DNA of 64,000 nucleotides from Norana najaformis (taxonomy: Eukaryota > Annelida > Clitellata > Crassiclitellata > Hormogastridae). Location of the stretch: NCBI GenBank assembly GCA_964023275.1, contig OZ029929.1:310001-374000 (forward strand), given 5' to 3'. Below, one piece after another: positions 17,646-55,075 of the stretch. How positions within the stretch are numbered: the stretch's first letter is position 1; each line of letters begins with the position of its first letter. Made by a program: the position numbers and the translations under genes. Below the pieces are notes generated by a model, which saw nothing but the letters and a program-made list of their open reading frames with translations, made no database searches and was not told the origin of the DNA.

Positions 17646-18299
17646 TGAGGCAGTGGCAGAGTTTCTTCTTTAACTACACAAAAAAAACCAGAGAGGTCAG
17701 CGTTTTTTACTGGATAAATAGAGCTGCCTATCGATTAGCAACATTGAATATAGGCATCGTTCCATTTTTCACTTTCCCTTCTTACGTTTAAGTAGTTTTA
17801 TGTCACAATTTTTGCAAGTGAAAATGGGGCTTCACCTGAAGAAAATGCTTTGAACATGTGTGCAAGCGAGTGGGTAATTCTATTGCGATCTTTCTGTCGA
17901 AAACAGCCTGGCGCTTATTGAAAATGTTTCCTTTACATTCGCTAGATGGCAAAACGGGTTTTAAAAGCTCCTTGGATTAAATTCTGGCATTCGTCTCAGA
18001 GTCCTTTACACGTGTTGACCACTCCTTCAGGTTCTTTCTGTCTGTATGTCTCGCTGTCTCTGTGCTTGTCCGTCTCTTTGTCTGTGTTGATGGCGGATTA
18101 GGCAGCGGGAACGTGGGCTGATTGCAGGTGCGAAAGACTGGTGGCGGTTTTTCTAAATTTAGTACGCTTGAATAATTCCCTGTATGCATATTTAAATTAA
18201 ATCATGTATCTTACTTTCTGCCCATTCCACAAAGCACCTGTGTTCAGATTTCGATATGCGTGTGGCGATGCCAGCTGCGTAATGTAATGCATCTGCACC

Positions 18300-18545
18300 C
18301 TTGCAATAGTTTTTCCATCTTTCCCTTTTCTATCCTTCTGATCGAATTCCGAACACCAGCCACCATTGCCCTCTACGTGCCTGCCTGCCTGACTCTTGGA
18401 TTTTAACCTGGAACCGAACCCCGATGTTTCTACAGCGCCCAACGAAAGTTAAGCCTAAGGAACCAGCTTATTCACGCGCTCAGTCAAAACAAAATCGACA
18501 GGCAGGAAGGGGTTTCGAGGTCAGGATCCAAGAGTCAGACACTCA
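18300..18545. mobile_element. Two LINE 3'UTR tails in head-to-head inverted arrangement
   Basis: Plus-strand UTR sequence to ACCTGGAACCGAACCCC (18404-18421) is followed at once by an antisense tail (TTTCTACAGCGCCCAACG to CCAAGAGTCAG). The two halves share about 35 bp in inverted orientation, giving a fold-back. Confidence 0.75.
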
Positions 18546-18706
18546 ATGTAATCTATGCGATCTGCTTCATTGACAGTCCACCCCACAGCGTCTCTGCTTT
18601 AAGATTTTGATGTACATTGACGACGACAGTTGGCTAATTAATGCATCTGACTATTTCTGTCCTGCCAATGAATTATCAATGATGTCGTCACTCATAAGGA
18701 TTCTGT

Positions 18707-18826
18707 ATGTAAGTACGTATGTAAGTACGTATGTATGTAAGTATGTATGTACGCACGTGCGTATGCATGTACTTATGTATATATGTACGCATGTATGTAT
18801 GTATGTATGAATGTATGTATGTGTTC
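18707..18826. repeat. TATG microsatellite
   Basis: Degenerate (TATG)n with TACG variants inside an array unit. Equivalent TATG tracts occur at 20415-20490 and 24905-24955. Confidence 0.9.
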
Positions 18827-21749
18827 CCTTTCCAGTGGACTAGTTATGATTACATACTACTGTTGCATTTGTGTCACATAAATTTCCAAAACCAGCGGAT
18901 ACTGTAATCTATGAAATTGCCCTGCATGAAGTTTTCCAAAAAGAGGTGTCAATCCAGAGCCCATATTTAGTGAACGCATTTTCTCTCTTCTTATAAAATT
19001 ACTTCAGGTAATGTATGCCCCAAGTTTTATAAATTTATTTACGAAAAAACGGGGTTTGACTCGAAGAGAGACTTCTGCACAAGTGAAGCCATAATTATTT
19101 TACGATTGCTGTGGTAATTGCACGCATGCGTTTTTGAAAATGTTTCATTTGTATTCGCTAGGTGGCAGCGCAGATTGAAAAAGCGTCAGATCAAATCGCG
19201 CGGTGGTTACACGACTTCCATGCACGTGTTGGCCACTCCTTTACAATCTGTATGTCTGCATTTCTGTTTGTCTCTGTGTTTTTTTCGTCTGTCTAATGCA
19301 CAAGGCATCAACCGACGGTGCTCGTGAAAAAGCTAGTGCTCTGCGCTTGGCTTTTAACTAAACAGTAATCGGGTCAGTATCCAGAAGATATAAATCCATG
19401 TAAAACCATAATTAATTTGCTATCGTTTTCGTAAATAGAGGAGTCTGTTGAAACTATTTTCATTTGCATTTGCACAGTTTTTAAAAGCCCGATTTCTGTG
19501 ATATGTTGTATGACTCCATGGAGAGACAGTCAGCCGGCTTTGGTGGATGGTGTTTGGAAAAGAACCGGAAAGTGAGCTAAGGGGAAGAGGAGGGCTCAGG
19601 ATTGGATTTGTGGAAGAGGAGTGAACACGTCTTTCCCTTTACCACTTTCGCTTCTTATGAAATTAATTGATTTTATGTTCCAATGTTTTACTCATAAAAT
19701 CAGGGTTTAACCCGAAGAAATATCTTTTAAATTAAGTACAACTGAAACTGTGAAAATAAAACTGGGTACATTTACATTAACCCTAACTTCTCCTCTTCCT
19801 CTTGTCTCTCTGGTCTTCTTGAAACCGGACCTGGTTCTTGACATGGCGTCTTTGGACAACCCCATTGACTTGACACAGCGCTCGTGAATAAGCTAGTGCC
19901 CTGCGCTTGGTTTTTATGTAGTGCTTTAGAAATTTCGAGTTTACGATCATAATTTATTACGAGTACAGTGGCGGTTGTAAATGTTTCATTCGCATTCGCT
20001 AGGTGGCAGCAGTTTGAAAGCGACCCATTAGATCAAATTCTGGCAATCTTTACCCGAATCCGGTGCACGTATTGACCACTAGTTTACATTGTTTCTGTGC
20101 CTGGATGTCTGCCTGTCTCTGTGCATGTCTTCCTGTTTGTCTGTGTGTATGGTGCATTATGCAGCTGGAACGTCTAAGCCGTTTTCAGGTGCAAAGGTCT
20201 TGTTGGCTGTACTTCTAAATTTACTAAATTTTCCCTTAGCATGTAATCTATCTACGTGATCTGCTTCACTGACCGTCCATCCCACAGAACCTGTGTTTTA
20301 AGATTTTGATGTGCATCTGGCGATGACAGCTGAGTAATCAATGCACCCGACTATTTCACGAGCTTTGTCACCTGTTTCTGACTACTCGTCCATTCGTGGC
20401 GATTTGTTTTGCATATGTATGTGTGTATGTGTATGTATGTATGTATGTATGTGTGTATGTATGTATGTATGTGTATGTATGTATGCACGTGTACCCTTTC
20501 CCGTGGCCTAGTTATTATTGCGTCACATTTCCCAAAAAACAGTGGATAGTGCAATGTAATATAGAGTAATTCTTGTAGAAGGCGCAGCACGAAATCTGTG
20601 TAAGGAAGACCAGCCTATTTACTTTCAAAAAAGAGGTGTCTATCCAGAACCCATATTTAGTGAACATTTTCACTTTCTCTTGTGTTATAAAATTACTTTT
20701 GCTAATTTTATGACACAATTTTTATTTATAAAAAATGTGATTTGACTCAAAGAGAGACACCTGCACAAGTAAAGCCTTTATTATTTTACGATCGCTGTCG
20801 TAATTAAACGGGTAAGATATTGAAAATGTTTCATTTGCATTCGCTAGGTGGCAGCACAGTTTTGAAAAAGACCATTAGATCAAATCGCGCTCTGGAAACA
20901 CGACTTCCATACACGTGTTGACCACTCCTTTACATTCTACATGTCTGCATGTCTGTTTGTCTCTGTGTTTATCCGTCTGTCTGTCGTCTTGATTTGGGTC
21001 GGATTAGGCAGGTCACACGTGTGCTGCATCTAGGTGCGATTACACTTGTTGGCGCCATTTCTAAATTTAGTAAGCTTAGGTTCTCGGTTTGCATATAATT
21101 CTGTCGTTTGATGCCCATCCTACAGCGCATCTGCTCTCAGCTTTTGGCGCGAGTCCGCCAAAGCCAGGTGCGTTATACACCGGCCTACATACACTAATTT
21201 TACCGCTCTGTCTCAGTTGGATGACCGCCGATCAGTTTTTAAGTGAGGGGGTAGTCTAAAGCAGTGGGAGATATGCAAATGTAAATGTAAACTTTCGAAA
21301 TTTTTCAGCGCCACACAAAAGCCGAGTCAGGGAGACCAAAACAGACCCAATGAGAGAAGCGAAATGTATGAGGAAGATGCATATTTGTTGTGGGTGGTCT
21401 CATCAGTAAAGTAACATTTCCCACATATGAGATATAGGGGAGGGCTCATTTCCTTTTATTTAGACCCTTGATCCGGCAGTGGACGAATCCCAAGGTCCTG
21501 GACACGGGGCCAGTGCATTGCAGGACTTGCCGTTTACCTTTCAGCTAGGTGGCAGCACAGTTTCGAAAAAGACCATTAGATCAAATCGCGCGCTGGTAAC
21601 ACCACTTCCATACACGTGTTGACCACTCATTTATATTCTACATGTCTGCATATCTTTTTGTCTCTGTGCATATCCGTCTGTGTGTCTGTGTTGGTGCAGA
21701 TTAAGCGCGTATCCTGTATGCATGTGCGAATAGACCTTTTGGCGGTTGG

Positions 21750-22137
21750 AGAAAATGATTTGTTGTATGTAATCAACACCTTGGTTAGTGATTCCCAAAT
21801 ATTTCTCCACTGCTGCATATTTGAACTTGCTTTCTTACATCCTTCAACCCAAATGCAGTTTCATGTGTGGAGTTTTGTGCTTGCCAGGATTGTATCCTCA
21901 GAACCACACTTATAATACCAGATCAAAGGGTAATTATCATACAAGTTTTGCCCGTACAAACACTCGTCTATTTTCTATTAAATGCGTTATGGAACAATTT
22001 ATCTCATGATATTCGTATTCTGCCCAATATAAAATTATTTAAACATTATATACGCGCATATTTGAATGAACTCAATAAGTGAATTCATGTGAATTAATTC
22101 ATTTTTGTTCTTGTTACAAAGGGTTAGGGTTAGGGTT
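21750..22137 (+). mobile_element. LINE C-terminal remnant ending in a TTAGGG tract
   Basis: Plus-strand frames encode HTYNTRSKGNYHTSFARTN then, after a frameshift, LWNNLSHDIRILPNIKLFK. This is the YNTR...R-T...WN-L-x-x-x-I...LFK-x-L pattern of non-LTR retrotransposon C-termini. A stop, about 45 bp of UTR and GGGTTAGGGTTAGGGTT (22121-22137) follow. It interrupts an array unit near 21750 and is 5'-truncated and frameshifted. Confidence 0.75.
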
Positions 22138-22174
22138 GCGTGCAGGACACCAGAATCAAACCGACGACGACGAA

Positions 22175-22440
22175 GATGAGATGATGATGATGATGATGAT
22201 GTGAATCATGATCGTGTAGTAGTAGTAGTAGTGGTAGTGGTAGTGGTAGTAGTGGTAGTGGTAGTAGTGGTAGTAGTAGTAGTAGCAGCAGCAGAATTGA
22301 ATAATAATTGAACAATAATTTTAATAATAATGTTAACAATAATTTTAATCATAACCTTAATCGTAATATTCTTAATATGTAGAAGGAGCAGGAGGAGGAG
22401 GAGGAGGAGGAGGAGGAGGAGGAGGAGGAGAGCATTTTGT
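22175..22440. repeat. GATG, GTA and GGA microsatellites
   Basis: (GATG/ATG)n at 22176-22202, (GTA/GTG)n at 22216-22290, AAT-rich sequence, and (GGA)n at 22388-22432. Confidence 0.9.
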
Positions 22441-22493
22441 GATGAAAGTTTTATGCAGTTAATTAGAAAGTCTGTGTAGTGTCTAGTGGCACT

Positions 22494-22870
22494 GTGGCCG
22501 ATTTGCTTGAGCGCTCCTGCTCACTCAAAGCCTCTTAAATGGGGTCACAGTTCACTGACCACACACAAGTTCAAGACTCGTCTACAGCAAATCATTTGAA
22601 AACAGACAATTGTAATGGCGGCCGATTCCTTTGAGCGCTCCTCACTCCATACCTGGCGAACCATACACAATCAAGACCTGTGTACAGTATGCAAATCGTT
22701 TGAAAACAGGCAAGTGTGAGTGAGTCTTGTGGCAGGCGGCAGATTGGTTTGAGCGCCTCTTCTCCCTACTCTACTCCACGCCTGTTAAAGGCGGTCAAGG
22801 TTCGCTGACCACACACAAGTTCAAGGCCCATCTACAATATGCTAACTGGCTGAAAACTAGAATCAACCTT
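22494..22870 (+). repeat. About 120-bp tandem repeat, 3 diverged copies
   Basis: Copies begin GGCCGATTTGCTTGAGCGC (22496), GGCCGATTCCTTTGAGCGC (22619) and GGCAGATTGGTTTGAGCGC (22738). Each has a CACACACAAGTTCAAG-like block and a TTTGAAAAC-like end. Confidence 0.75.
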
Positions 22871-23197
22871 AACGTCACAGTCACACGACACCTTTGAGCG
22901 GTTACTGACTGAAAGGGCACTATAGAAAATGCTCAGCTACATACGTAATTATGTATAGTTATAAACACGTGGTTATAAACACTTTGGCCCAGGCACAGAC
23001 CAAGTACAACTTTTGGATATAACTTTCGCTTTGTTTGCTTTTGATTGATGCCTTTGATCTTGCGAACAAACTTTGCTAACTATTTCTGTTCTGCCAATGA
23101 ATAATCAATAATGTCCTCGTTCATAAAGATTCTATACAGAGATACTTAGACAAGTATGTATATATGTATGTATCTTCTTGTAGTAATAATAATAATG

Positions 23198-23302
<105 letters not shown>

Positions 23303-23579
23303 TCCCGTGGCAACACCAATGGATAGTATCATGTAATGAAGTATAAATCTGTGAGATACGCTGCAAGGAATCCATGAGGCAGATCAGCCAATTAACTTTC
23401 TAAATAGGGATGTCGATCCATAGCCCACATTCAGTGAACACATTTTCCCTTTTCACTTTCTCCTCTTTTAAAATTACTTTAGCTAATTTTATGCCACAAT
23501 TTTTATTTATGAAAAATGAGGTTTGATTCGGAGAGACATGTGCACAATTGAAAACAATTTTTTACGATCGCTATCGTAA

Positions 23580-23805
23580 TCGTGGGACTCGGTTGTGTAG
23601 TGGTATGGACTCTGCCTCAATTGCAAGATCGCGGGTTCGAATCAGCCTCAAGCCACTGCGAAGCGACTTTGGACAAGTTGCTCACCCACAATTGTCTGTG
23701 AGGAAGGCAACGGAAAACCACCTCACTCATCTCATCCCCGCGTGGCATAACGCCAATGGACCTGCCTTCAGGCAGAAACCCATGATCATCATCGTAATTA
23801 TAAAA
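23580..23805 (+). mobile_element. tRNA-derived SINE (GGAAAACCACCTC family)
   Basis: The head has an A-box-like TGTGTAGTGGTATGG and a B box GGTTCGAATC (23634-23643), spaced as in pol III tRNA promoters. The body includes GGAAGGCAACGGAAAACCACC and ends GAAACCCATGATCATCATCG. It is not a functional tRNA: the acceptor stem does not pair. Relatives at 25303-25515 (+) and 52805-53040 (-). Confidence 0.8.
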
Positions 23806-23819
23806 GTGCGCTATTGAAA

Positions 23820-26800
23820 ATTATTCATATGCATTCGCTAGATGGCAGCACAGTTTTGAAACAGACCATTAGATCAAATCTCGCGCCTGTTACACGAATC
23901 CCAAACACGTGCTGACCACTCCTTTACAATCTGTATGTCTACGTGTATTTTTGTCTCTGTGTTTGTTCGTCTGTGTGTCTGTCTGCAATTGTGCCGGATT
24001 AGGCAGGTGGCATGCAGGTGCGAATGGACTTGTTGACACCTTTTAAAGCCTCTGTTTGCATAACTTACAGGTCATTTCTTGCCCATCCTATAACGCACCT
24101 GCTCTCAGATTTCGGCGCGAGTCCACTAAAGCCAGCTGCTCTGTGAACCTGCCTAACAACACTAGTTTTGCCGCCCTCTCTCAGTTGGATGAGCGCCAAT
24201 CCGTTTTTAATTGAGCGCGAGTCTAAAGCAGTGGGAGATATGTAAATGTAATCTCCGAAATTTCTCAGCGGCACACAAAAGCCTCGCCAGAGAGACCAAC
24301 TTCTACACGACCCATTGGGAAGCGAAATGTATGAGGAAAATGTGTATTTTCTGGGGATAGTCTGAACACTAAAGTAGAGTTTCCGATATCCCATAAGTTA
24401 GACGTAGAGGAGGCCCTCATTTACTTTTCTTTCGGCTCTTGGACTAAAACAATGGACGAATCCCAAAGTCCTAGACACGGGGCCAGTGAATCGCAGGACT
24501 TGTCATTTACTTTCCAGCTAGGTGCCAGCACAGCATTGAAACAGTCCATTAGATCAAATTGCGCGCTCTTTACACGAATTCCATACACGTGTTGACCACT
24601 CTTTTGCATTCTGTATGTCTGTGTGTATCTGTTTGTCACCTGTCTGGAGTTGGGTTGGATTAGGCAGGTGCGCTGCATACAGGTGCGAATAGACACTTGT
24701 TGGCGCCATTTACAATTTATGAGCGAAAGTTCTCTGCATATAATTATCTTTCTTTGCTGTCCATCCCACATCGCCTATGTTTCAAGATTTTGGTACGCAT
24801 CTGGCGGCGACAACTGACTAATGCACCGGCCTATTTCTTTTCTGCCAGTGAATTAATTATCAATGATGCCCTCGCTCTTAATGATTCTATAAAAGAGAGA
24901 CAGACATGCATGCATGCATACATATATGTACGCATGCATGTATGTATGTATATATACCTATTACCGTGGCCTAGTTATGGTTACATACTATAGTTGCATT
25001 TGCGTCACATTTCTCAACACCAGTGGATAATATCTTGTAATGAAGTGTAAATGTGTGAGATGGCGCTGCAAGGAATCTGTGAGTCAGTTCAGCCAATTAA
25101 CTTTTAAAATAGAAATGTCGATCCATGGCCCACACTCAGTGAACACATTTTGCATTTTCACTTTCTCCTCTTTAAAAATTACTTTAGCTAATTTTGTGCC
25201 CTAATTATTATTTTTAAAAAATATGAGGTTTGTTTGACTCGAAGAGAGACAGACATGTGCACCAATGAAACCAAAGTTGTTTTACTATCGGTATCATAAT
25301 CGTGGGACATGGTTTTTTAGTGGTATAATCGGTGCCTCGTAATCGGAGGATCGCAGGTTCCAATCTGCCTTAAGCCTCTGCGTAGCGACCTTGGAAAAGT
25401 TGCTCACCAACAACTGTCTACGAGGAAGGCAGCGGAAAACCACCTCATTCATCTCATGCCCGGGGGGGGGGGCAATTGACCTGCCTTGAGGCAGAAACTC
25501 ATGATCATCATCGTGATTATACGAGTGCGCTATTGAAATTAATCATGTGCATTCGCTAGATTGCAGCACAGTTTTGAAACAGACCATTAGATCAAATCCC
25601 GCGTGTTTTACACGAATCCCTTACACGTGTTGACCACTCCTTTGCAATCTGTAGGTCTATGGGTCTGTTTGTCTTTGTGTTTGTCCGTCTGTCTACTGTC
25701 TAGAGTTGGCCGAATTAGGCAGCTGGCATGCAGGTGCGAACAGACTTGTTGACATTATTTCTAAATTTGGTAGTCTTAAGTCTCTGCTTGCATAAATTTC
25801 CTATAATTTCCTGCCCATCCTACAGCGCACCTGCTTTTAGATTTCGGCTCGAGTCCACCAAAGTGAGCTGCGCTATGCACCTGTCTACACACATTAGTTT
25901 TGCCGCCCTCTCTCAGTTAGATGACCGCCGATCCCTTTTAATTGAGGGGGAGTCCAAAGCAGTAGGTTGATGCCTTGTGCATTAGACACTGGCGCATTAG
26001 AAGTTGCTAATTATTATTATATGTAAATGTAAATGTAAACCTCCGAAACATCCCAACCCACACAAAAGTCTCGTCAGAGAGACCAACTTCTATAATGGAG
26101 CTATAAGACACATTGGGAGAAGCGAAATGTATGAGGAAGACGTGTACTTTATGAGGATAGTCTCAGCATAGTTTCCAATATCCCATCCAATATCCCATGG
26201 GGATGCCCTCAATTCCTTTTCTTCAGAAAATTGAGCCGACAATGGACGAATCTCAATTTCCTGAACACGGGACCAGCGCATAGCAGGACTTGGCATTTAC
26301 TTTCCACCTAGGTGGCAGCACAGTTTTCAGACAGATCACGAATTCCATACACGTGTCGACCACTCCTTTACAAACTGTATGTCTGTGTATTTGTTTGTCT
26401 CTGTGTTTGTTCATCTGTCTGGAGTTGGGTCGTATTAGGCAGGTGCGATGCATACAGCTGCGAATAAACTTGTTGGCGCCATTTCTAAATTGAGTAGCTT
26501 AAGTTTTCTGCTTATAATTATCTGTCATTTGCTGCCCTTCCTACAGCGCACCTGTTTTCAGATTTAGGCGCGAGTCTGCCAAAGCCAGATGCGTTAAGGA
26601 CCATCATACTTACAATAGTTTTGCCTCCCTGTCTCAGTTGGATGACCGTCGACCCCTTTTTAATTGAGGGGGTAGTCTAAAGCAGTGGGAGATATGTAAA
26701 TGTAAACCTCCGAAATTCCTCAGTGCCAAACAAAAGCCGTCTAAGGGAGACCAAATTATACAATGGCGCTAAAAGCCCCATTGGGAGAAGCGAAATGTAG

Positions 26801-28220
26801 GAGAAAGATATGTATTTTATGGGGATAGACTCAGCAGTAAAGTGTCCCATAGCTCATAAGTCAGACGTAGGGGAAGCGCTCATTTCCTTTTCTTTTGGCC
26901 CCTGTGCCGAAATAGGCGAATCCCATGGTCCTGAACACGGGGCCAGCGCAACGCAGGACTTGTCATTTAATTTTCAGCTAGATGGCAGCACAGTTTTGAA
27001 AAACACCATTAGATCAATTTGCGCGTCGTTTGCGTAAATCTCATACACGTGTTGTATCTGCGTATCTGTTTGTCTCCGTGTTTGTTCGTCTGTGTGTCCG
27101 GAGTTGGTTCGGATTAAGGCAAGTAGCACGTTTGCTGTGTAGGGGTGCGAATAGAATTGTTGGCGCGATTTCTAAATTTAGTAGCTTCAGTTCTCTGCAT
27201 ATTGTTATACTCTGCCCATCCTATAGCGCACCTGTTTCCAGATATGTAGATGCTCGCCAATCCCTTGTTAATGGGAAATAGCCTGAAGCAGAAAGATATA
27301 TCAGTGGCGGCTACAGGATTGTTTACGTGGGGGGACATGAGCATTCCAGAGGGCGCCACAGTCCACCGTGCATGGGTCCGGTCTTAGGCGCGCCTGCATA
27401 TAACCAAGAGGGGCGTCTCTATTAAATTCGCCGCTAGGATAAGTGTAAATGTAAACCTCCAAAATTTCTCAGCACCACACAAAAGCCGCAGGTGTAGGGG
27501 AGACCAACTTATACAATGGCGCTACACGACCCACTGGGAGAAGCGAAATGTATGAGGAATATGTTTATTTTTATGAAAATAGTATCAGCAGTAAAGTAAT
27601 GTTTCCCATATCCCATAAGTGAGACATAGACGAGGCGCTCATTCGTTTTCTTTAGACCCTTGAGCTGAGAATGGACGAATCCCAACGTTCTTGACAGGGG
27701 GCCAGAGCATCGTAGGACTTGCCGTTTACTTTCCAGCTAGGTGGCAGCACAGTTTCGAAAAAGACCATTAGATCAAATTGTGCGCTGGTAACACGACTTC
27801 CACACACCTGTTGACCACTCCTTTGCATTCTGTACGCCTGTGTGTATGTGTGTCTGTCTGTCTGGGGTTGGGTCGGATTAGACAGGTGGCAAGTGTTTTC
27901 CATGCAGGTGCGAATAGACTTGTTGGCGCTATTTCTATATTTAGTACATTATATTTAGTATTGTTTGCATATAATCATATCTGCCATATGCTGCCGATCC
28001 TACAGCACCGCTGCTCTCAGGTTTCGGTTGCGTTATGCCTCTGCTAACTTAAAATAGCTTTGTCGCCCTGTCTCAGCCCTGAATGCCCGCCGAGTCCTTG
28101 CTAATGGGAAGAAAGTAGCCTGAACAAGAGGGATATATGAGTGGCGGCTCCAGGATTGTTTGCATAGGGGAAGAGCAATTCCAAGGGGCGCCATAGTCTG
28201 GCATTGGGTCTGCTCTGAGG
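23820..28220 (+). repeat. Tandem composite-unit array, left-arm part (about 6 units)
   Basis: Unit starts are marked by the CGCTAG/CAGCTAG-TGGCAG motif at 23834, 24516 (mutated), 25551 (mutated), 26304, 26974 and 27733, giving spacings of 670-1035 bp. After the E-box and GCAGGTGCGAATAGACTTG blocks, each unit continues with CGGCGCGAGTCC, TCTCAGTTGGATGACCGCC, TAAAGCAGTGGGAGATATG, CCTCCGAAATTTCTCAGCG, GGAGAAGCGAAATGTATGAG, CCCATATCCCATAAG and CAATGGACGAATCCCAAGG. The last block leads directly into the next motif. Confidence 0.88.
25303..25515 (+). mobile_element. tRNA-derived SINE, second copy
   Basis: Diverged relative of the 23.6-kb SINE; B box reads GGTTCCAATC; contains a G-run (25461-25470). 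In the right arm most of this copy is replaced by TACA repeats near 51555. Confidence 0.75.
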
Positions 28221-28227
28221 GGCACAC

Positions 28228-28382
28228 ATACATACATACATACATACATATACACATGCATACATGCATACATACGTATATGCATACATACATGCATTCA
28301 TGTATACATACGTACATACATATGTACATACATACATACATACTTCCATACATACGTTCGTACATGCATATACACATACATA
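28228..28382. repeat. TACA/TGCA microsatellite
   Basis: Degenerate (ATAC)n. Right-arm counterpart at 48583-48760 differs in length and motif detail. Confidence 0.95.
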
Positions 28383-28384
28383 GT

Positions 28385-28960: not shown

Positions 28961-28964
28961 CGAC

Positions 28965-29572: not shown

Positions 29573-29574
29573 TC

Positions 29575-43740: not shown

Positions 43741-43799
43741 CATGGTAGCTACGTCGAGGCGCAGACGACCCATTAATCCAACGACAGTAGGATGGAAAG

Positions 43800-43965: not shown

Positions 43966-43974
43966 CAGGAACTG

Positions 43975-44901: not shown

Positions 44902-45340
44902 AATAGTGTATATGTATGTGTGGATATATATATGTGTGCTTTTATGAATGCATGTATGCATGTCTGTATATAACCATGTATGTATGTATGTATGTATGTA
45001 TGCATGCAGGCATGTTTGTATATATTCATGTATGTATGTGTGTATGCATGTATGCATGCATGTGTACATATCCATGTACGAATGCATGCATGTATGTACA
45101 CATATATAGAACTATGTATGTATGTATGTATGTATGCATGTATGTATGTATATGTATATGCCTATCCATGTATGCATACATGTGTGCATATATGTATGCA
45201 TGTATGCATTTATGCATGTAAGCATGTAAACATGTAAGCGTACAAGCATGTGTGTGTATGTGTAAGCTTGGTGTAAGCAAGTAAGCAAGCATGCATGCAT
45301 AGTAGGTATGCACATATGCATGCATGAATGCATGTATCTG
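44902..45340. repeat. TATG/TGCA microsatellite (right arm)
   Basis: Mirror of 31618-32058. Confidence 0.95.
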
Positions 45341-45399
45341 GTTATTCACTGTATACAGCATCTTCTAAGAAGCAGTTGACAAAGGGTATAAAGAATCTC

Positions 45400-45735
45400 A
45401 CAATTATAACAAGCAACTTCTATAGCGCCAGAGTCTAATGCTCAAAACATCAACCGGAGGTGCACCCAAACCAAGGAAAGCATGGTCAGTAGGACAGAGT
45501 CAGTCTACAGAGACAGCGAGGCAGCCTGTGGTGGATAAGAGAGGTGCAAGTCTTAAGTTGTGGCCGAAATTACATCACGAGATGGACGAAAACGAACAGA
45601 CGCCAGAAGAGAATTCTACAAGTCCAGCAACTGAAAGCTCATCCATCAAGAACAAGTATAAGGGCGCAAAGTACGGTCGATATGGTCCCACTCCAAGTGT
45701 CTCTTTAGAGGGGGCTAGCGGAAGTTAAATCTTTA
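45400..45735 (-). mobile_element. CR1-like LINE 3' end (right arm)
   Basis: Mirror of 31225-31560. The plus-strand 96-codon frame (45438-45728) is antisense to the element. Confidence 0.65.
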
Positions 45736-45743
45736 AATAATTT

Positions 45744-45820
45744 CTGCGCTGGCAGGGATTTGAACCCCCAACGTCGAAGTTGACCTTCAAAACACGCTGA
45801 CTAGAAGAATATCGCTCATC
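45744..45820 (-). mobile_element. tRNA-like SINE head (right arm)
   Basis: Mirror of 31139-31215. Confidence 0.6.
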
Positions 45821-45840
45821 CACAGCAAAGATAAAACTCA

Positions 45841-46023
45841 ATGAAAACTCACAGTTCAGTTGGCGTTGCGTCTGTTCCCGTCGTCAGAAGAGTCATGAAG
45901 GAGCGAAAACTGCGTCCTCCGCCTCCAAATGGTTGGTACCTCGTTGCACCCGCGAAGGTAGACGAGTTTGACACGCCCCCTTTGGCGCCCAAGGTCGCCT
46001 TCAGACGGTGGCTGTTCACCTAG
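45841..46023 (+). CDS. Short duplicated ORF, hypothetical (right copy)
   Basis: The predicted 60-residue product is the same as at 30936-31118 (contains LRPPPPNGWYLVAP). Perfect protein identity is expected if the arms are young or converted and does not by itself prove coding. No domain is recognised. Confidence 0.25.
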   Translation: MKTHSSVGVASVPVVRRVMKERKLRPPPPNGWYLVAPAKVDEFDTPPLAPKVAFRRWLFT

Positions 46024-46649
46024 ACTGGCAGCGTTCTTCGACTGGCGGTTGACCGGACACATCTGCTCATTGGCGCTTCCAGGTCTGGTAAATAAGATCG
46101 ATAAAATTAAAGTAGGCCTAACTTTCAATAAAAATTAAAATATAAATAAAAATTGAAGTAAATATCAACTAAAATGAAAAATTAAACTAGATATCAATAA
46201 GAATTAAATTTAATTTCAATAAAAAAAATTAATAAAAATCAATGCAATTAATTTCATACTTAGTTAAATTACAGTTACATTTAAACCTGCCTCGTCGCTC
46301 TACTGACTGGCTGCATCGTTCTTCGACTCTGAATGGTCCTTAAACTTCTCTGACTGAATTCTTTAAAGACCTTCCCTTCATTGAGTCTTCTCTCTAATGA
46401 CCCTGTGACCCCGGCACTCCCTCGCTATCCGTAGACCGACTATCGTATGCAGCCTAAGTGTCGGCATTTAGGTCACCTACAAAAGGCTATTAGTTAAATA
46501 CACGTCAGTGTTTGCATAATCCAACTCTACAACGTATTTCTAAATGATGATTCCGTGTACACAAAAGCAACCAATCGAGACAGCCTACAACAGCCCGTAC
46601 CCTCAATGACATTCGTCTGTCCAATATATTGGGGTGTAAGTTTCTCAAA

Positions 46650-46930
46650 CAAATGTAATGTACACGTTTTTCTATAGCGATCATATTGCGCCGACCCTGC
46701 TCATTTTTCAATGAGTTTATCGGGTGAGATCCCTGATAATCCCTCATTACCGACGTCGGTTTGAATGGGTGTCACTCACTCAAAACTGAAAATACTCCTC
46801 TTCTACAAATCCTATCCAGATTCCTCCTCTTCCCATTACCTCACTTTCCGGTTCAATTCCGAATACCATCCACTGTTCAATTCCATCAGGCAAAAAGTCA
46901 AGCCTCAGAGAAAGAGATAGAGAAGCAAAT
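46650..46930. mobile_element. SINE and LINE 3' fragments (right arm)
   Basis: Mirror of 30050-30312. Left reads TCTTCCAT-type differences, and several substitutions separate the arms here. Confidence 0.6.
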
Positions 46931-47287
46931 GCATACAAAGACAGAGAAACCTCTGTTGAGACAGAAGAGGAAGTTGACAAAGGATGATGCAGATTAACCC
47001 ATAAGATGACGCAAAGGCTGTCAAGAAAATGAAAGCTACATATCTCACACAAAGATAAGCAACGCCATGAAGAGACATTTACAGACATACAAAGCCGGCG
47101 TAGGAAACAAACCGTCCAAGTAACATGACCTGATATAACTACACTATCTCGGTAATAGATACACTCTATAGAAATTTACTAATAAACTGCAATGAACTGA
47201 ACGGCAAGATGGCCATATTTTATCAACAGGGTGGCCTTATACCACTGCCTGTAGAATTCAAAGAAAGTTGACCCTAACATATACGAA

Positions 47288-47690
47288 TTGGGTATGTGAC
47301 AGCCTAGTGTTCAGCGTGCTGGACTATCAATCCAGACGCCAGGGGTTCAAATCCTCGCCAGGTTGGTTAGATAGTTAATGTCAATGAGAAATTTCTATGG
47401 CGCCGGTGTCTAATGCAAAAGGCAGTAACCAACGGCACACCAAAATTAAGCTAAATTAATGACCTATTAATCAGAAAGTCAGTCTCTTGAAACAGAGAGA
47501 CAACCTATATCGGGGAATAAGCCAACTGAGAAAGGTCAGTCTTAGGTTGAGAGTGAATTGATATAAGCTACCGAGCAGAACAAACAGAAGCAGGAAGAGA
47601 GTTCCAATATTTAGATCCAACAACCTTAAAACCTCGCTCACCAAGAATGGTTTCAGTTTTTGGCACAAATAGAGACCTGGTTGGATAAAG
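47288..47690. mobile_element. tRNA-headed SINE (+) abutting CR1-like LINE end (-), right arm
   Basis: SINE head 47288-47385 has B box GGGGTTCAAATCC. The LINE end 47385-47690 mirrors 29270-29572. Confidence 0.7.
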
Positions 47691-47894
47691 ACAGACCTGG
47701 TAATGGCGATTGGTTTTAAGTATTGTGGTTGACCAGAGTTTGATGTTTTACAAGCCCCAATTTGAAATAAATGGGAAGATTCACGTACAGGGGTTATATG
47801 CTTATATTTTCACGTATCTGTTATAGCTGTAACCAGAGTTCAAGATTCTGCCCCACTTAGCAAACTAAGCCATAAAAAGAATACAATGACTGCC

Positions 47895-47995
47895 TTTAAA
47901 CTGGTAGTGCCAGTTCCAAGCCAGGAAGAGGAGGAGGGCGACGTCAACGGCCTTTGATGCCATAAGATGTCGTTAAACACTGGAACTACTACTAC
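47895..47995 (-). repeat. About 105-bp dispersed repeat, right-arm copy
   Basis: Mirror of 28965-29070. Confidence 0.7.
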
Positions 47996-48582
47996 ACTGT
48001 CGATGGGAAGATCAGAGTGCGAGGGAGAGCCCACCATCACATGCCAAGGCTAAGAAAGGAAGTTGATAACATCTGATACCCATGATTGCCCCTTGGGGCT
48101 CAAGGGTCCGCTCTTCTTCTTATTTAAACGAACCTCTCAATGATACTGAGATATGGCAGATTTTAAACTAAAATTGAATTCTGACAGAATTCAATTAGTA
48201 CAAAGTATATACTTAACAAAATATTGTACAAAATTTATTTTCCTATTTATTGATAGCTATCTGGGAAGCTCATCGTGTTAGTTAGTTTTCGAAACATTTA
48301 ATTTATCGCCTTTTGAGTACCTCATAAGAGCGCCGTCTACGCTAGCCTAACTGATGTCAATATGCAAGCAATGCTTAGATAGCTAGAAGGGGCATCACCT
48401 GAGGGCCCCCGCACACACGACGAGCCCAACCGACCGAGTACCATCGAGATGTAACAGTTGACAGAATGCGTGTAAATAAATATTTGAATACAAGATAGGA
48501 TTCGCTGGAGAACCTCAGAGACCCTACTATCTGTGCGAAACCAATAGGCCTACCGTGCATATAATACTTTTCCTACTGACTA

Positions 48583-48760
48583 TGTATGTGTATATGTATG
48601 TATGTATGTATGCATGTATGTATGCATATACGTATGTATGCATGTATGCATGTTTATATATGTATGTATGTATATATGTATGTATGTATGTATGTACTTA
48701 CGTACCTACGGAAGTACGTACGTACGTACTTATGTATGTGTATGTATGTATGTATCTAAT
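48583..48760. repeat. TATG/TACG microsatellite (right arm)
   Basis: Mirror of 28228-28382. It is followed at 48757-48800 by an antisense tail TTTTATATAGCGCATTTTAAG that the left arm lacks. Confidence 0.9.
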
Positions 48761-51559
48761 CTTTTATATAGCGCATTTTAAGAACCTCTCAAAAGCGCTG
48801 TGAACATGTGTGTATGTATGTATGTATGTGTGCCCCTCAGAGCAGACCCAATGCCAGACTGTGGCGCCCCTTGGAATTGCTCTTCCCCTATGCAAACAAT
48901 CCTGGAGCCGCCACTCATATATCGCTCTTGTTCAGGCTACTTTCTTCCCATTAGCAAGGACTCGGCGGGCATTCAGGGCTGAGACAGGGCGACAAAGCTA
49001 TTTTAAGTTAGCAGAGGCATAACGCAACCGAAACCTGAGAGCAGCGGTGCTGTAGGATCGGCAGCATATGGCAGATATGATTATATGCAAACAATACTAA
49101 ATATAATGTACTAAATATAGAAATAGCGCCAACAAGTCTATTCGCACCTGCATGGAAAACACTTGCCACCTGTCTAATCCGACCCAACCCCAGACAGACA
49201 GACAGACACACATACACACAGGCGTACAGAATGCAAAGGAGTGGTCAACAGGTGTGTGGAAGTCGTGTTACCAGCGCACAATTTGATCTAATGGTCTTTT
49301 TCGAAACTTTGCTGCCATCTAGCTGAGAAGTAAACGGCAAGTCCTACGATGCCCTGGCCCTCTGTCAAGAACGTTGGGATTCGTCCATTCTCAGCTCAAG
49401 GGTCTAAAGAAAACGAATGAGCGCCTCGTCTATGTCTCACTTATGGGATATGGGAAACATTACTTTACTGCTGATACTATTTTCATAAAAATAAACATAT
49501 TCCTCATACATTTCGCTTCTCCCAGTGGGTCGTGTAGCGCCATTGTATAAGTTGGTCTCCCCTACACCTGCGGCTTTTGTGTGGTGCTGAGAAATTTTGG
49601 AGGTTTACATTTACACTTATCCTAGCGGCGAATTTAATAGAGACGCCCCTCTTGGTTATATGCAGGCGCGCCTAAGACCGGACCCATGCACGGTGGACTG
49701 TGGCGCCCTCTGGAATGCTCATGTCCCCCCACGTAAACAATCCTGTAGCCGCCACTGATATATCTTTCTGCTTCAGGCTATTTCCCATTAACAAGGGATT
49801 GGCGAGCATCTACATATCTGGAAACAGGTGCGCTATAGGATGGGCAGAGTATAACAATATGCAGAGAACTGAAGCTACTAAATTTAGAAATCGCGCCAAC
49901 AATTCTATTCGCACCCCTACACAGCAAACGTGCTACTTGCCTTAATCCGAACCAACTCCGGACACACAGACGAACAAACACGGAGACAAACAGATACGCA
50001 GATACAACACGTGTATGAGATTTACGCAAACGACGCGCAAATTGATCTAATGGTGTTTTTCAAAACTGTGCTGCCATCTAGCTGAAAATTAAATGACAAG
50101 TCCTGCGTTGCGCTGGCCCCGTGTTCAGGACCATGGGATTCGCCTATTTCGGCACAGGGGCCAAAAGAAAAGGAAATGAGCGCTTCCCCTACGTCTGACT
50201 TATGAGCTATGGGACACTTTACTGCTGAGTCTATCCCCATAAAATACATATCTTTCTCCTACATTTCGCTTCTCCCAATGGGGCTTTTAGCGCCATTGTA
50301 TAATTTGGTCTCCCTTAGACGGCTTTTGTTTGGCACTGAGGAATTTCGGAGGTTTACATTTACATATCTCCCACTGCTTTAGACTACCCCCTCAATTAAA
50401 AAGGGGTCGACGGTCATCCAACTGAGACAGGGAGGCAAAACTATTGTAAGTATGATGGTCCTTAACGCATCTGGCTTTGGCAGACTCGCGCCTAAATCTG
50501 AAAACAGGTGCGCTGTAGGAAGGGCAGCAAATGACAGATAATTATAAGCAGAAAACTTAAGCTACTCAATTTAGAAATGGCGCCAACAAGTTTATTCGCA
50601 GCTGTATGCATCGCACCTGCCTAATACGACCCAACTCCAGACAGATGAACAAACACAGAGACAAACAAATACACAGACATACAGTTTGTAAAGGAGTGGT
50701 CGACACGTGTATGGAATTCGTGATCTGTCTGAAAACTGTGCTGCCACCTAGGTGGAAAGTAAATGCCAAGTCCTGCTATGCGCTGGTCCCGTGTTCAGGA
50801 AATTGAGATTCGTCCATTGTCGGCTCAATTTTCTGAAGAAAAGGAATTGAGGGCATCCCCATGGGATATTGGATGGGATATTGGAAACTATGCTGAGACT
50901 ATCCTCATAAAGTACACGTCTTCCTCATACATTTCGCTTCTCCCAATGTGTCTTATAGCTCCATTATAGAAGTTGGTCTCTCTGACGAGACTTTTGTGTG
51001 GGTTGGGATGTTTCGGAGGTTTACATTTACATTTACATATAATAATAATTAGCAACTTCTAATGCGCCAGTGTCTAATGCACAAGGCATCAACCTACTGC
51101 TTTGGACTCCCCCTCAATTAAAAGGGATCGGCGGTCATCTAACTGAGAGAGGGCGGCAAAACTAATGTGTGTAGACAGGTGCATAGCGCAGCTCACTTTG
51201 GTGGACTCGAGCCGAAATCTAAAAGCAGGTGCGCTGTAGGATGGGCAGGAAATTATAGGAAATTTATGCAAACAGAGACTTAAGACTACCAAATTTAGAA
51301 ATAATGTCAACAAGTCTGTTCGCACCTGCATGCCTGCTGCCTAATCCGCCCAACTCTAGACAGTAGACAGACGGACAAACACAAAGACAAACAGACCCAT
51401 AGACCTACAGATTGCAAAGGAGTGGTCAACACGTGTAAGGGATTCGTGTAAAACGCGCGGGATTTGATCTAATGGTCTGTTTCAAAACTGTGCTGCAATC
51501 TAGCGAATGCACATGATTAATTTAAATAGCGCACTCGTATAATCACGATGACGATCATG

Positions 51560-51650
51560 AGTTATACATACATACATACATACTACATATACCGGCATAC
51601 ATACATATATACATAATTACATACATACATGCGTACATATATGTATGCAT
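51560..51650. repeat. TACA microsatellite replacing a SINE (right arm)
   Basis: GATCATGAGTTATACATACATAC occurs here and again near 51852. The left arm has a full SINE at the matching place. Confidence 0.8.
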
Positions 51651-52804
51651 GTCTGTCTCTCTTTTATAGAATCATTAAGAGCGAGGGCATCATTGATAAT
51701 TAATTCATGGGCAGAATAGAAATAGGCCGGTGCATTAGTCAGTTGTCACCGCCAGATGCGTACCAAAATCTTGAAACATAGGCGATGTGGGATGGATAGC
51801 AAATGAAAGATTACAGGAAATTTATGCAACAGAGACTTAAGAGTACCATGTTCATGAGTTATACATACATACATACATACATATGCAGAGAACTTTCGCT
51901 CATAAATTGTAAATGGCGCCAACAAGTGTCTGTTCGCACCTGTATGCAGCGCACCTGCCTAATCCAACCCAACTCCAGACAGGTGACAAACAGATACACA
52001 CAGACATACAGAATGCAAAGGAGTGGTCAACACGTGTATTGAATTCGTGTAAAGAGCGCGCAATTTGATCTAATGGTCTGTTTCAATACTGTGCTGCCAC
52101 CTAGCTGGAAAGTAAATGACAAGTCCTGCGATTCACTGGCCCCGTGTCTAGGACTTTGGGATTCGTCGATTGTCGGTTGAAGGGCCTAAAGAAAAGTAAG
52201 TGATAGCCTCCCCTTCGTCTCACTTATGGAACCTGGGAAACTGTACTTTAGTGTTAAAACTATCCCCACAAAATACACATCTTCCTCATACATTTCGCTT
52301 CACAATTGGTCGTGTAGAAGTTGGTCACTCTGACGAGGCTTTTGTGTGCCGCTGAGAAATTTCGGAGATTACATTTACATATCTCCCACTGCTTTAGACT
52401 CTCGCTCAATTAAAAACGGATTGGCGCTCATCCAACTGAGAGAGGGCGGCAAAACTAGTGTTGTTAGGCAGGTTCACAGAGCAGCTGGCTTTAGTGGACT
52501 CGCGCCGAAATCTGAGAGCAGGTGCGTTATAGGATGGGCAAGAAATGACCTGTAAGTTATGCAAACAGAGGCTTTAAAAGGTGTCAACAAGTCCATTCGC
52601 ACCTGCATGCCACCTGCCTAATCCGGCACAATTGCAGACAGACACACAGACGAACAAACACAGAGACAAAAATACACGTAGACATACAGATTGTAAAGGA
52701 GTGGTCAGCACGTGTTTGGGATTCGTGTAACAGGCGCGAGATTTGATCTAATGGTCTGTTTCAAAACTGTGCTGCCATCTAGCGAATGCATATGAATAAT
52801 TTTC

Positions 52805-53040
52805 AATAGCGCATTTTTATAATTACGATGATGATCATGGGTTTCTGCCTGAAGGCAGGTCCATTGGCTTTATGCCACGCGGGGATGAGATGAGTGAGGT
52901 GGTTTTCCGTTGCCTTCCTCACAGACAATTGTGGGTGAGCAACTTGTCCAAAGTCGCTTCGCAGTGGCTTGAGGCTGATTCGAACCCGCGATCTTGCAGT
53001 TGAGGCAGAGTCCATACCACTACACAACCGAGTCCCACAA
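52805..53040 (-). mobile_element. tRNA-derived SINE (right arm)
   Basis: Mirror of 23580-23805; B-box complement GATTCGAACCCG at 52977-52988. Confidence 0.8.
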
Positions 53041-53889
53041 TTACTATGGCGATCGTAAAAATTTATGGTTTCACTTGTGCACATGTCTCCGAATCAAACC
53101 TCATTTTTCATAAATAAAAATTGTGACATAAAATTAGATAAAGTAATTTTAAAAGAAGAGAAAGTGAAAAGGGAAAATGTGTTCACTGAATGTGGGCTAT
53201 GGATCGACATCTCTATTTAGAAAGTTAATTGGCTGATCTGCCTCATGGATTCCTTGCAGCGTATCTCACAGATTTATACTTCATTACATGATACTATCCA
53301 TTGGTGTTGCCATGGGAAAAGGTATACATACATACCTATATACATACATACATTCAATATTATTATTACTGCAAGAAGATACATACATACATACGTGCAT
53401 GTATACATCCATGCATACATATATACATACTTGTCTAAGTATCTCTGTATAGAATCCTTATGAACGAGGACATTATTGATTATTCATTGGCAGAACAGAA
53501 ATAGTCCGAAGCATTAGTCAGTTGTTATCGCCAGATGCGTACCAAAATCTTGATAGGCGAAGTGGGATGGGCAGTCAGTGAAGTAGATCACGTAGCTTAC
53601 ATGGAAAGGGAAAATTTATTAAATATAGAAACACAGATAACAAAGCCTTGCACCTGTACACAGCATACGTTTCAGCTGCCTAATGCACCATAGACACAGA
53701 CAAACAGACAGGCACAGAGACAGGCAGCCACTCAGAGAGAGAAATAATGTAAAGAAGTGGTCAGTAGGCCTACATGCACAGGATTCGTGTAGACGGAATT
53801 GAACTAATGGGACGCTTTCAAAATGTGCTGCCACCTAGCGAATTCGAATGAAACATTTTCAAGAGATATGTCTATCTAACTGTAATTGT

Positions 53890-54110
53890 AATCGTAAAAC
53901 TCGAAATTTCTAAAGCGCCAATTTTCGCCTTATCTCACTTTCCGGTTCAATTCCAAACACCATCCATCATGGCTCTCTGTCTGCCTGCGTTACCCTTGAA
54001 TCTTCATCTGGAACCGAACCCTTCATCCCAATCGTATTTTGTTCTTGCCTGGGCGCCAGATTTAGCCTTCGTTGGACGAAATCTCGTGGTTGGACGATTA
54101 CGATTCATTT
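53890..54110 (+). mobile_element. LINE 3'UTR, GAATAAGCTGG family (rearranged)
   Basis: Begins with an antisense scrap GTAATCGTAAAACTCGAAATTTC, then plus-strand CTCACTTTCCGGTTCAATTCC, CATCTGGAACCGAACCC and CTTCGTTGGACGAAATCTCG. Two tails appear fused head to head, as at 18.4 kb. Confidence 0.65.
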
Positions 54111-54154
54111 CAATGTCGGATACAAAACGACACCTAAATGTCACTACAAATTGT

Positions 54155-54305
54155 ACATGGTTTTACATAGCGACCGTATGGCCTCGACCCTGTTCATTCA
54201 TTTCAATGAATTGATCGGGTGATATCCTTTACCAACGCTGCCCGTTTGAATGGGCGCCACGCCAATTCCGGTCCCCGTGCACGGACCGTGCCAGCCCCAC
54301 TAGTT
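54155..54305 (-). mobile_element. SINE, GGTCGCTATA tail family
   Basis: TTTTACATAGCGACCGTATGG, then GCCCGTTTGAATGGGCGCCACG and GGTCCCCGTGCACGGACCG. Confidence 0.75.
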
Positions 54306-55075
54306 TACTATTGAGGGAAGTCAGCTAGATCACTATAAAATAGAGGAGTCATTTCCAAACATTTCGTTCCTACCCAATGCGTGTGCTTGCACTGTCTCAC
54401 AGTGGCAGATTTTGCCATAGGCGTGGGGGGATGGCGGTTGATCACTTTGGTTATTTGCCGGCGCTCCTCAGACCAGAACCGGGCATGGTGGACTGCCATG
54501 ACATGGTGCCCCTCTGAAAATGCTTTCCCCCTCCCACGCAATCAATCCTGGAGCCGCCACTGACTGTACAGACTATGTCCCATTGACGACACTTACGCAA
54601 TTCATTTCGCTCAGGCCTTTGGGTCTTCCTTATTGGTTCAGACTTTCCCTCATTTAGTAAGGGATCGGCAGCCAGCCGACCAGAAAACGGACGACAAAAC
54701 TACTGCTAGTGAGCAGGTGGATTTAACACCTGGCACCACATGACTCTTATTCGGAAACCTTTTAAACTAGATGTTCTGTGCAATGGGCAGAAAATAACAT
54801 ACATGACTTATTTATATGCAAACAGAGAAAATATTCAAGCGTACTAAATTTGGACATACCGTCACCAGTCTTTTGCACCTGTACACAGCATACGTTCCAG
54901 CTGCATAATCAGCTATAAACACGGACACGCACAGAGAAAGCCAGACGTACAGGCACAAAGAATCTAAAGGAGTGTTCAACACGTGCAAGCTTACAGGCGC
55001 GAGACGAATGCCAGAATTTAATCGAATGGGCTTTTGAAACCGTGCTGCCATCTAGCGAATGTAAAGAAAACATGT

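What the first reader, a model, noticed from the sequence alone, without database searches (positions are those of the whole stretch)
17920..55075. Arrays of CTCF-like motifs in convergent orientation, paired with CACGTG E-boxes
Most tandem units begin with CGCTAGRTGGCAG or CAGCTAGRTGGCAG. This matches 12 of 14 positions of the CTCF consensus CCASYAGRKGGCRS (core YAGRKGGCAG). I count nine intact forward sites on the left (17937, 19153, 19994, 20840, 21541, 23834, 26304, 26974, 27733) and seven intact reverse sites on the right (49308, 50081, 50741, 52093, 52772, 53826, 55043), plus three mutated ones. About 70 bp further on, most units have CACGTG, a perfect E-box of the USF/Myc type. The inversion leaves the two clusters facing each other, the orientation used by loop anchors in vertebrates. 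Mammalian SINEs are known to have spread CTCF sites; this would be an independent case with amplification in tandem.
Basis: partly seen in the sequence, partly recalled or inferred. Interest (0 to 1): 0.75.

Follow-up and report, generated by a model that had tools for sequence, protein, structure and literature searches.

The report
CTCF-like arrays in giant palindromic repeats
In an unnamed animal, tandem DNA repeats that each begin with a CTCF-like site, conserved better than most of the rest of the repeat, sit facing inward in the two arms of a large palindromic element that recurs around the genome, so the facing orientation comes from the element's architecture and is not by itself evidence of a chromatin loop.

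Summary
Nineteen unit copies (11 forward, 8 reverse) carry CTAGRTGGCAG with at most one mismatch; 15 of 19 have CACGTG downstream.

For it: across 98 copies (window plus 20 other stretches) the motif changes 1.7 times per site against 4.2 elsewhere in the unit. The genome encodes an 11-finger CTCF ortholog. CTCF-like words are enriched genome-wide, with a local preference for T at position 1 (TCRCTAGRTGGCAGYA) that A-type units match. The ortholog keeps nearly all human contact residues in fingers 3-5 but few in 6-7.

Against or beyond it: most of the right cluster mirrors the left inside a large palindromic repeat (a second copy matches over 34 kb). Convergent array pairs recur at 13 places, so convergence is built into the element, not selected here. 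The extended motif also lies in the inverted ends of a 370-bp element often found near arrays, so a transposase-type site is a live rival. The E-box is weakly constrained. Published echinoderm and annelid data show no CTCF orientation rule. Occupancy and looping are untested.

Best reading: a giant foldback-type repeat whose tandem units carry a constrained site, most likely for the animal's own CTCF.

The parts
17831..21744 (+). Outer forward array: four A-type units (17942, 19158, 19999, 20844) and one B-type (21545); four other arrays (C16, C17 twice, C7) stop matching at window 21741-21744
21745..23078 (.). Left end segment shared in pieces with other copies of the palindromic repeat, not part of the inverted arms in this copy
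23079..35067 (+). Left arm of the palindrome (pairs with 53505-42579, with gaps; 25496-33004 is 97.2% identical to 51563-43953)
35068..42578 (.). Spacer between the arms; 35068-39793 and 41239-42578 also match copy 2 on C17, 39794-41238 does not
42579..53505 (-). Right arm of the palindrome
53506..56778 (-). Outer right part with two more A-type units (53838, 55055); mirrored at the left end of the C12 1.22 Mb copy (to 56772)
17942..17952 (+). motif CTAGATGGCAA (1 mismatch), A-type unit
19158..19168 (+). motif CTAGGTGGCAG, A-type
19999..20009 (+). motif CTAGGTGGCAG, A-type
20844..20854 (+). motif CTAGGTGGCAG, A-type
21545..21555 (+). motif CTAGGTGGCAG, B-type
23838..23848 (+). motif CTAGATGGCAG, A-type
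24518..24528 (+). motif CTAGGTGCCAG (1 mismatch), B-type
25556..25566 (+). motif CTAGATTGCAG (1 mismatch), A-type
26308..26318 (+). motif CTAGGTGGCAG, B-type
26978..26988 (+). motif CTAGATGGCAG, B-type
27737..27747 (+). motif CTAGGTGGCAG, B-type
49312..49322 (-). motif CTAGATGGCAG, mirror of 27737
50071..50081 (-). motif CTAGATGGCAG, mirror of 26978
50741..50751 (-). motif CTAGGTGGCAG, mirror of 26308
51493..51503 (-). motif CTAGATTGCAG (1 mismatch), mirror of 25556
52094..52104 (-). motif CTAGGTGGCAG, mirror of 24518
52772..52782 (-). motif CTAGATGGCAG, mirror of 23838
53828..53838 (-). motif CTAGGTGGCAG, older relative of 19999
55045..55055 (-). motif CTAGATGGCAG, older relative of 17942
57480..57870 (.). 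About 370-bp element with inverted ends CACTAGAAGCTGGATTG (57487 and 57849) and four copies of the extended motif (three reverse, 65-66 bp apart, one forward at 57821; up to 4 mismatches of 16); 13 near-full and 4 three-quarter-length copies listed genome-wide, this one included, 10 of these 17 within 20 kb of a listed unit

Best explanation
The two clusters are mostly the internally repetitive arms of a large palindromic repeat of foldback type, at least about 35 kb, that is dispersed in this genome. Each tandem unit (mostly 600-1,200 bp apart) begins with CTAGRTGGCAG, a binding site kept by selection or by the amplification process. The protein is most likely the animal's own CTCF, whose recognition has shifted to about TCRCTAGRTGGCAGYA. 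The inward orientation of the two arrays is inherited from the palindrome. Shown: the dispersed palindrome, slower change of the motif, the CTCF gene, genome-wide enrichment of CTCF-like words. Inferred: that CTCF is the protein that binds, and that binding occurs. Not shown: any loop, insulation or effect on genes.
For: Palindrome: arm identity 97.2% over 7.6 kb. A second copy on C17 is collinear with window 22234-56778, interior included. An arm interior piece occurs at 24 places of at least 2.3 kb; 16 of these form eight + then - pairs 15-18 kb apart, and two more pair with a shorter partner. Among exact-core copies, 13 of 13 neighbouring array clusters under 100 kb apart are convergent. 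Constraint: 98 unit copies, 1.73 against 4.23 changes per site, p = 0.0006, 2 of 170 windows as low; YAGRKGGCRS intact in 75 of 86 genome copies. The genome copies were found with a query that excludes the motif. CTCF: 52% identity over 309 residues, E = 1e-100, 345 bits against 184 for the next hit; 11 fingers, contact residues 4/4, 4/4, 3/4 in fingers 3-5 and 1/4, 2/4 in fingers 6-7. Motif: TCASYAGRKGGCRS 1,222, CCASYAGRKGGCRS 569, ACASYAGRKGGCRS 532, against 122-215, 85-198 and 122-260 expected. On C1, 35 of 70 independent sites have C at -2; of these 25 have T at -3 and 22 have A at +12, against 8 and 16 of the 35 without.
Against: No occupancy data. The vertebrate matrix (counts recalled) scores intact A-type sites at p 0.8e-5 to 2.3e-5 and intact B-type at 2e-5 to 9e-5, moderate only. 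A-type units, which match the inferred extended motif, are not better conserved than B-type, which mostly do not: 36 of 44 against 37 of 39. Within A-type or B-type units of the window alone the motif is not unique: 9 of 182 and 10 of 189 windows are as conserved. On C1 the word CTAGRTGGCAG is only about twofold enriched (91 against 39-47 expected). The motif with its upstream ATTCG also lies in the inverted ends of a small element. The genome has many other C2H2 zinc-finger reading frames (336 matches to the query, several per frame), any of which could bind. No transposase was found and element ends are not pinned down.
Confidence: 0.5

Rival explanations
1. The motif is a transposase (or other element-encoded protein) binding site. 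Foldback and Galileo-type elements can carry secondary transposase sites in tandem repeats inside their long inverted ends; the resemblance to CTCF is partly coincidental.
For: The same extended motif, ATTCGCTAGRTGGCAG with a similar A/T-rich upstream stretch, is present four times (with up to 4 mismatches) in a 370-bp inverted-ended element at 57480-57870; 10 of its 17 longest listed copies lie within 20 kb of a listed unit. Tandem repeats in such inverted repeats have been proposed to hold secondary transposase sites (PMC3573991, passages). A-type units do not keep the core better than B-type units.
Against: No transposase domain in ten of the 40 ORFs listed for 36-64 kb, and no ORF over 163 aa in the 7.4-kb interior of a simple copy (no domain search there), though the search was partial. 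The core with CTCF-like flanks is enriched in mostly unrelated sequence on C1. 9 of 19 inferred changes in the motif fall at its R and Y positions, where CTCF tolerates change.
Confidence: 0.27
2. Neutral descent: the motif is simply part of an amplified repeat and nothing binds it; slow change reflects chance, conversion or alignment effects at the unit's edge.
For: All copies descend from few units; a second block with no CTCF resemblance (TGTTGACCACTCCTT) is nearly as conserved; 13 of 171 windows with an optimised degenerate consensus equal or beat the fixed CTCF core; columns are not independent under conversion.
Against: The 11 motif columns change 2.4 times more slowly than the others, p = 0.0006, while the next 11 columns do not (p = 0.37); the best of the 171 windows is the core itself.
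Confidence: 0.13
3. One reading: the arrays are working convergent CTCF loop anchors.
For: Convergent pairs 21-32 kb apart at 12 places plus one at 80 kb; CTCF gene present; tandem CTCF arrays do anchor long contacts in mammals (DXZ4; PMC6985041, passages).
Against: Orientation follows from the palindrome, so it carries no evidence of selection for looping. Orientation rules were absent in echinoderms and not clear in an annelid. No contact data.
Confidence: 0.1

Closest known systems
Foldback-type transposons with internally repetitive inverted ends (Tetris of Drosophila virilis; Galileo; FB)
   Same: Long inverted arms containing tandem repeats, dispersed copies, arrays of the internal repeat also found on their own, and a small element with a related sequence (as DAIBAM shares end portions with Tetris; abstract of PMC4079207)
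   Different: At least 35 kb with arms over 10 kb, against inverted ends of about 1.3 kb for the longest Galileo copies in the passages seen (PMC3573991); units of about 700 bp; no transposase or target-site duplication found; each unit has a CTCF-like site; shared ends between palindrome and small element not shown
DXZ4 / FIRRE / ICCE tandem arrays of mammals
   Same: Tandem repeat with CTCF-type sites of one polarity within an array (PMC6985041, passages; PMC3491370, search listing)
   Different: Those are single X-linked loci with proven CTCF binding; here many loci, divergent units, inverted pairs and no binding data
SINE-borne CTCF sites of mammals (B2 and others; recalled)
   Same: A repeat family spreading CTCF-like sites
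   Different: The carrier is a tandem unit in a large palindrome. Only the B-type units hold a SINE-like piece, which supplies the bases just upstream of the motif
CTCF motif use in other invertebrates (squid, sea star, sea urchin, annelid)
   Same: CTCF-like motif enriched at some genomic features
   Different: Those reports concern domain boundaries or open chromatin and promoters (PMC9023564, PMC13317027, PMC7854359, passages), not repeat arrays

Membership tests
CTCF binding site | Match to the vertebrate consensus CCASYAGRKGGCRS | tested here: not met
   12 of 14 positions at best; mismatches in the CCA part
CTCF binding site | Core YAGRKGGCRS | tested here: met
   15 of 19 units in the window; 75 of 86 genome copies
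CTCF binding site | CTCF protein with fingers 3-7 in the same genome | tested here: met
   C5:6403399-6404334, 11 fingers, contact residues kept in fingers 3-5 (one change), changed in 6-7
CTCF binding site | Motif more constrained than surrounding repeat | tested here: met
   1.73 against 4.23 changes per site, p 0.0006; within single unit types of the window it is among the top 10 windows, not alone
CTCF binding site | Occupied by CTCF in cells | not testable with these tools
   no ChIP or CUT&RUN data
Convergent CTCF loop anchor | Convergent motif pair | tested here: met
   13 of 13 neighbouring clusters of exact-core copies under 100 kb, but explained by the palindrome
Convergent CTCF loop anchor | Contact or cohesin signal | not testable with these tools
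   none
Foldback-type transposon | Long inverted arms with internal tandem repeats | tested here: met
Foldback-type transposon | Multiple dispersed copies of the whole structure | tested here: met
   one other copy compared over 34 kb, on C17; arm pairs on C2, C12 and C17; convergent array pairs also on C8 and C14
Foldback-type transposon | Defined ends with target-site duplication | tested here: inconclusive
   homology between copies continues beyond the arms; no clean end found
Foldback-type transposon | Transposase or a related autonomous element | tested here: inconclusive
   no Pfam transposase in ten of 40 listed ORFs of the window's 36-64 kb; longest ORF in L142 163 aa, not domain-searched
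DXZ4-like macrosatellite | One homogeneous array at one locus | tested here: not met
   units of the left array about 69-79% alike in the longer alignments and spread over many contigs

The most novel reading that the evidence does not exclude
A dispersed palindromic element in an invertebrate that delivers a ready-made pair of inward-facing CTCF arrays, mostly 21-32 kb apart, tuned to that animal's altered CTCF specificity: a portable insulator or loop cassette that could install domain boundaries wherever it lands.
Probability: 0.13. Interest if true: 0.85.

Novelty: new variant of a known kind. Interest (0 to 1): 0.6.

Why it matters
If CTCF binds these units, the genome holds many natural replicates of the same convergent CTCF array pair on at least five contigs. 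That would allow a direct test of whether convergence matters for looping outside vertebrates, where one paper says more lineages are needed (PMC13317027, passages). It would also show a dispersed repeat spreading CTCF sites in tandem in an animal with a diverged CTCF, and a matched shift of CTCF fingers 6-7 and of the genome's motif. If instead a transposase binds, it would show a transposon site that converged on the CTCF core. The animal is called an invertebrate here by inference only (diverged CTCF, no taxon identified).

Tried and rejected
Ascertainment bias as the cause of motif conservation: rejected, because units found without the motif all carry it within one mismatch in the window.

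Assembly artefact as the cause of the palindrome: unlikely, because the structure recurs at other places with its own divergence.

Known RNA family or tRNA gene in the window: none; the SINE-like pieces were recognised by eye from a box-B-like stretch, not by a tool.

First impression that the facing clusters came from one local inversion: abandoned.

Tool control for pattern counts (pattern read backwards; 152, 75, 78 and 160): it contains a CpG and overstates enrichment, so Markov expectations were used instead. Their training set is small (57-88 kb) and includes the window's flanks.

Reading the 370-bp element as an isolated MITE: weakened, because homology with one other copy runs about 70-80 bp past its ends and 10 of 17 copies sit within 20 kb of a listed unit.

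Finding a transposase or element ends: failed, on a partial search. Taxon: not identified. A literature search for CTCF with satellites, tandem and inverted repeats in invertebrates returned no paper, which is not proof of absence. Paper searches with sequence strings gave nothing useful.
Full report
What was checked. The motif CTAGRTGGCAG (up to one mismatch) occurs 21 times in the window against 1.76 expected. Nineteen are unit starts: 11 forward between 17942 and 27747, 8 reverse between 49312 and 55055; 15 are exact. An HMM made only from sequence downstream of the motif finds these 19 units and no others of comparable score. CACGTG follows in 15 of 19, in 13 of them 65-70 bp from the motif start. 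The vertebrate consensus is matched at 12 of 14 positions. With the recalled JASPAR matrix, intact A-type sites score p 0.8e-5 to 2.3e-5 and intact B-type sites 2e-5 to 9e-5; the single best match in the window is elsewhere, at 11149.

Unit anatomy. Units differ upstream of the motif. A-type units read about TTTCATTTGCATTCG|CTAG. B-type units read about TTTACTTTCCAG|CTAG, where the upstream 140 bp or so match stretches free of the motif at 41086-41230 and 61204-61342, parts of a SINE-like element. In B-type units the bases just 5' of the motif therefore come from that element. A second SINE-like insertion sits at the same place in two A-type units (23580-23800, 25300-25520; read by eye), so a larger duplication came after it.

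Palindrome. Most of the right cluster is the mirror of the left: 25496-33004 matches 51563-43953 at 97.2%, with 92.9% over 23079-24741 and 92.8% over 33267-34512. In the unit tree six right copies are sister to their left partners; 53838 and 55055 are older relatives of 19999 and 17942.

Genome context. The window is C17:310001-374000 of a 608-Mb, 17-contig genome. The unit without its motif is a dispersed family: 44 matches listed, with 40 of 912 candidates scored, on contigs C7-C9 and C11-C17. Eighty-two exact copies of a 32-bp core placed after the motif fall into 47 clusters, every one in a single orientation. All 13 neighbouring cluster pairs closer than 100 kb are convergent (12 at 21-32 kb, one at 80 kb). 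The 22 pairs farther apart are mixed: 12 divergent, 8 same-strand, 2 convergent. This count sees only exact-core copies: for example the reverse array at C17:76-81 kb has none and is not in it, although its nearest counted neighbour, at 40 kb, is on the same strand. An interior piece of the arm (28450-31600) is present at 24 places of at least 2.3 kb and 93-100% identity, both window arms included; 16 of these form eight + then - pairs 15-18 kb apart, two more pair with a shorter match, and six are unpaired in the list (40 of 9,438 candidates scored). Copy 2 on C17 is collinear with window 22234-56778 at 81-96% over the main pieces, arms, interior and about four fifths of the spacer included, with 6 forward and 8 reverse units. 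At two other copies the left end is the mirror of the window's right side: C12 1.22 Mb to window 56772, C17 0.98 Mb to at least 53954. The window's outer left array joins the palindrome at 21744|21745, a point where four other arrays also stop matching. Homology between copies runs beyond the arms, and no clean ends or target-site duplications were found.

Is the motif constrained? Twenty stretches from 10 contigs, chosen by similarity to the unit without its motif, cover 38 of the 44 listed matches (one other is the window, five were not fetched); they gave 99 HMM hits, 90 with the start mapped. Using 79 of these 90 (longer and better-scoring, all 20 stretches represented) plus the 19 window units, the 11 motif columns show 1.73 parsimony changes per site against 4.23 elsewhere (p = 0.0006 by random columns; 2 of 170 contiguous windows as low); the next 11 columns are ordinary (p = 0.37). 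The E-box hexamer gives p = 0.09, the 23-bp block around it p = 0.006; among the 19 window units alone the motif gives p = 0.0015, the hexamer 0.012 and the block 0.0003. Of 86 copies above 100 bits, 75 keep YAGRKGGCRS and 69 keep CTAGRTGGCAG. The fixed CTCF core is intact in 85 of the 98 aligned; 13 of 171 windows with a consensus fitted to the data do as well, the best being the core itself and others lying in TGTTGACCACTCCTT. The permutation treats columns as independent, which conversion between copies violates. Against a CTCF reading, within A-type or B-type units of the window alone 9 of 182 and 10 of 189 windows are as conserved as the motif, and A-type units (36 of 44 intact) are not better kept than B-type (37 of 39; Fisher p = 0.09).

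Is it CTCF-like in this genome? CTAGRTGGCAG occurs 1,786 times against 347-446 expected; on C1 alone, 91 against 39-47. Of those 91 sites, 81 were read; they form 70 flank clusters, 64 of them single sites. Half of the 70 have C at -2, and in that half T at -3 (25 of 35) and A at +12 (22 of 35) are common; in the other half less so (8 and 16 of 35). Genome-wide TCASYAGRKGGCRS counts 1,222, CCASYAGRKGGCRS 569 and ACASYAGRKGGCRS 532, that is 5.7-10 times, 2.9-6.7 times and 2.0-4.4 times expectation. The animal's preferred form is thus close to TCRCTAGRTGGCAGYA, which the A-type units match.

The CTCF gene. The best match to human CTCF fingers lies at C5:6403399-6404334 (345 bits; next 184). It has 11 fingers in order. 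The four contact positions equal human in finger 3 (4 of 4), finger 4 (4 of 4) and finger 5 (3 of 4), but less so in finger 6 (1 of 4) and finger 7 (2 of 4, V454 to N). In human CTCF, V454 of finger 7 contacts C2 and S364 of finger 4 contacts C12 (PMC10325916, passages), and finger 7 binds the CCA element (PMC12885311, passages). A changed 5' end of the motif with an unchanged 3' core fits these residues; this link is an inference.

Rival for the binding protein. A 370-bp element at 57480-57870 has inverted ends and four copies of the extended motif (up to 4 mismatches of 16), three of them 65-66 bp apart. Thirteen near-full and four three-quarter-length copies are listed, this one included; 10 of the 17 lie within 20 kb of a listed unit. 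Tandem repeats in long inverted ends have been proposed as secondary transposase sites (PMC3573991, passages), and in Tetris such repeats seeded satellite arrays (PMC4079207, abstract). A transposon-protein site therefore remains possible. No transposase was found, on a partial search.

Verdict. The convergent arrangement is real and recurrent but is a by-product of a palindromic, foldback-type repeat. Loop function is untested and, given published results from echinoderms and an annelid, should not be presumed.

Noticed in passing
window 57480-57870; C16:6488571-6508847: One inverted end of the 370-bp element recurs ten times on C16 at about 2.25-kb spacing, which looks like a tandem array of a related element.
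   Followed up: no
window 3428-3473 and 8619-8634: Further ATTCGCTAG-like sites outside the arrays: 3458(+) ATTCGCTAGAGGGCAA beside a reverse ATTCATTAGGTGGCGC at 3428, and 8619 ATTCGCTAGGGCGCCA.
   Followed up: no
C1, C11, C12, C15, C16: Many C2H2 zinc-finger reading frames, often several close together; on C12 some lie between the palindromic repeats.
   Followed up: no
window 10965-13601: Reading frame of 878 aa with leucine-rich repeats and an fn3 domain.
   Followed up: no
window 56699-57049: Reverse transcriptase fragment (RVT_1, E 8e-7, just under the curated cut-off); its sequence begins about where the window's match to copy 2 stops, near 56778.
   Followed up: partly
window 36484-37174: By eye, an RT-like reading frame in the spacer; Pfam gave no match.
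   Followed up: partly
C17 14 kb to 1.84 Mb and C12 0.49 to 2.77 Mb: Palindromes and arrays are frequent near the starts of these two contigs, often a few hundred kb apart.
   Followed up: no
C2:32091152-32118042: Runs of CCACTAGGTGGCAC spaced 28 bp apart in two small tandem groups.
   Followed up: no
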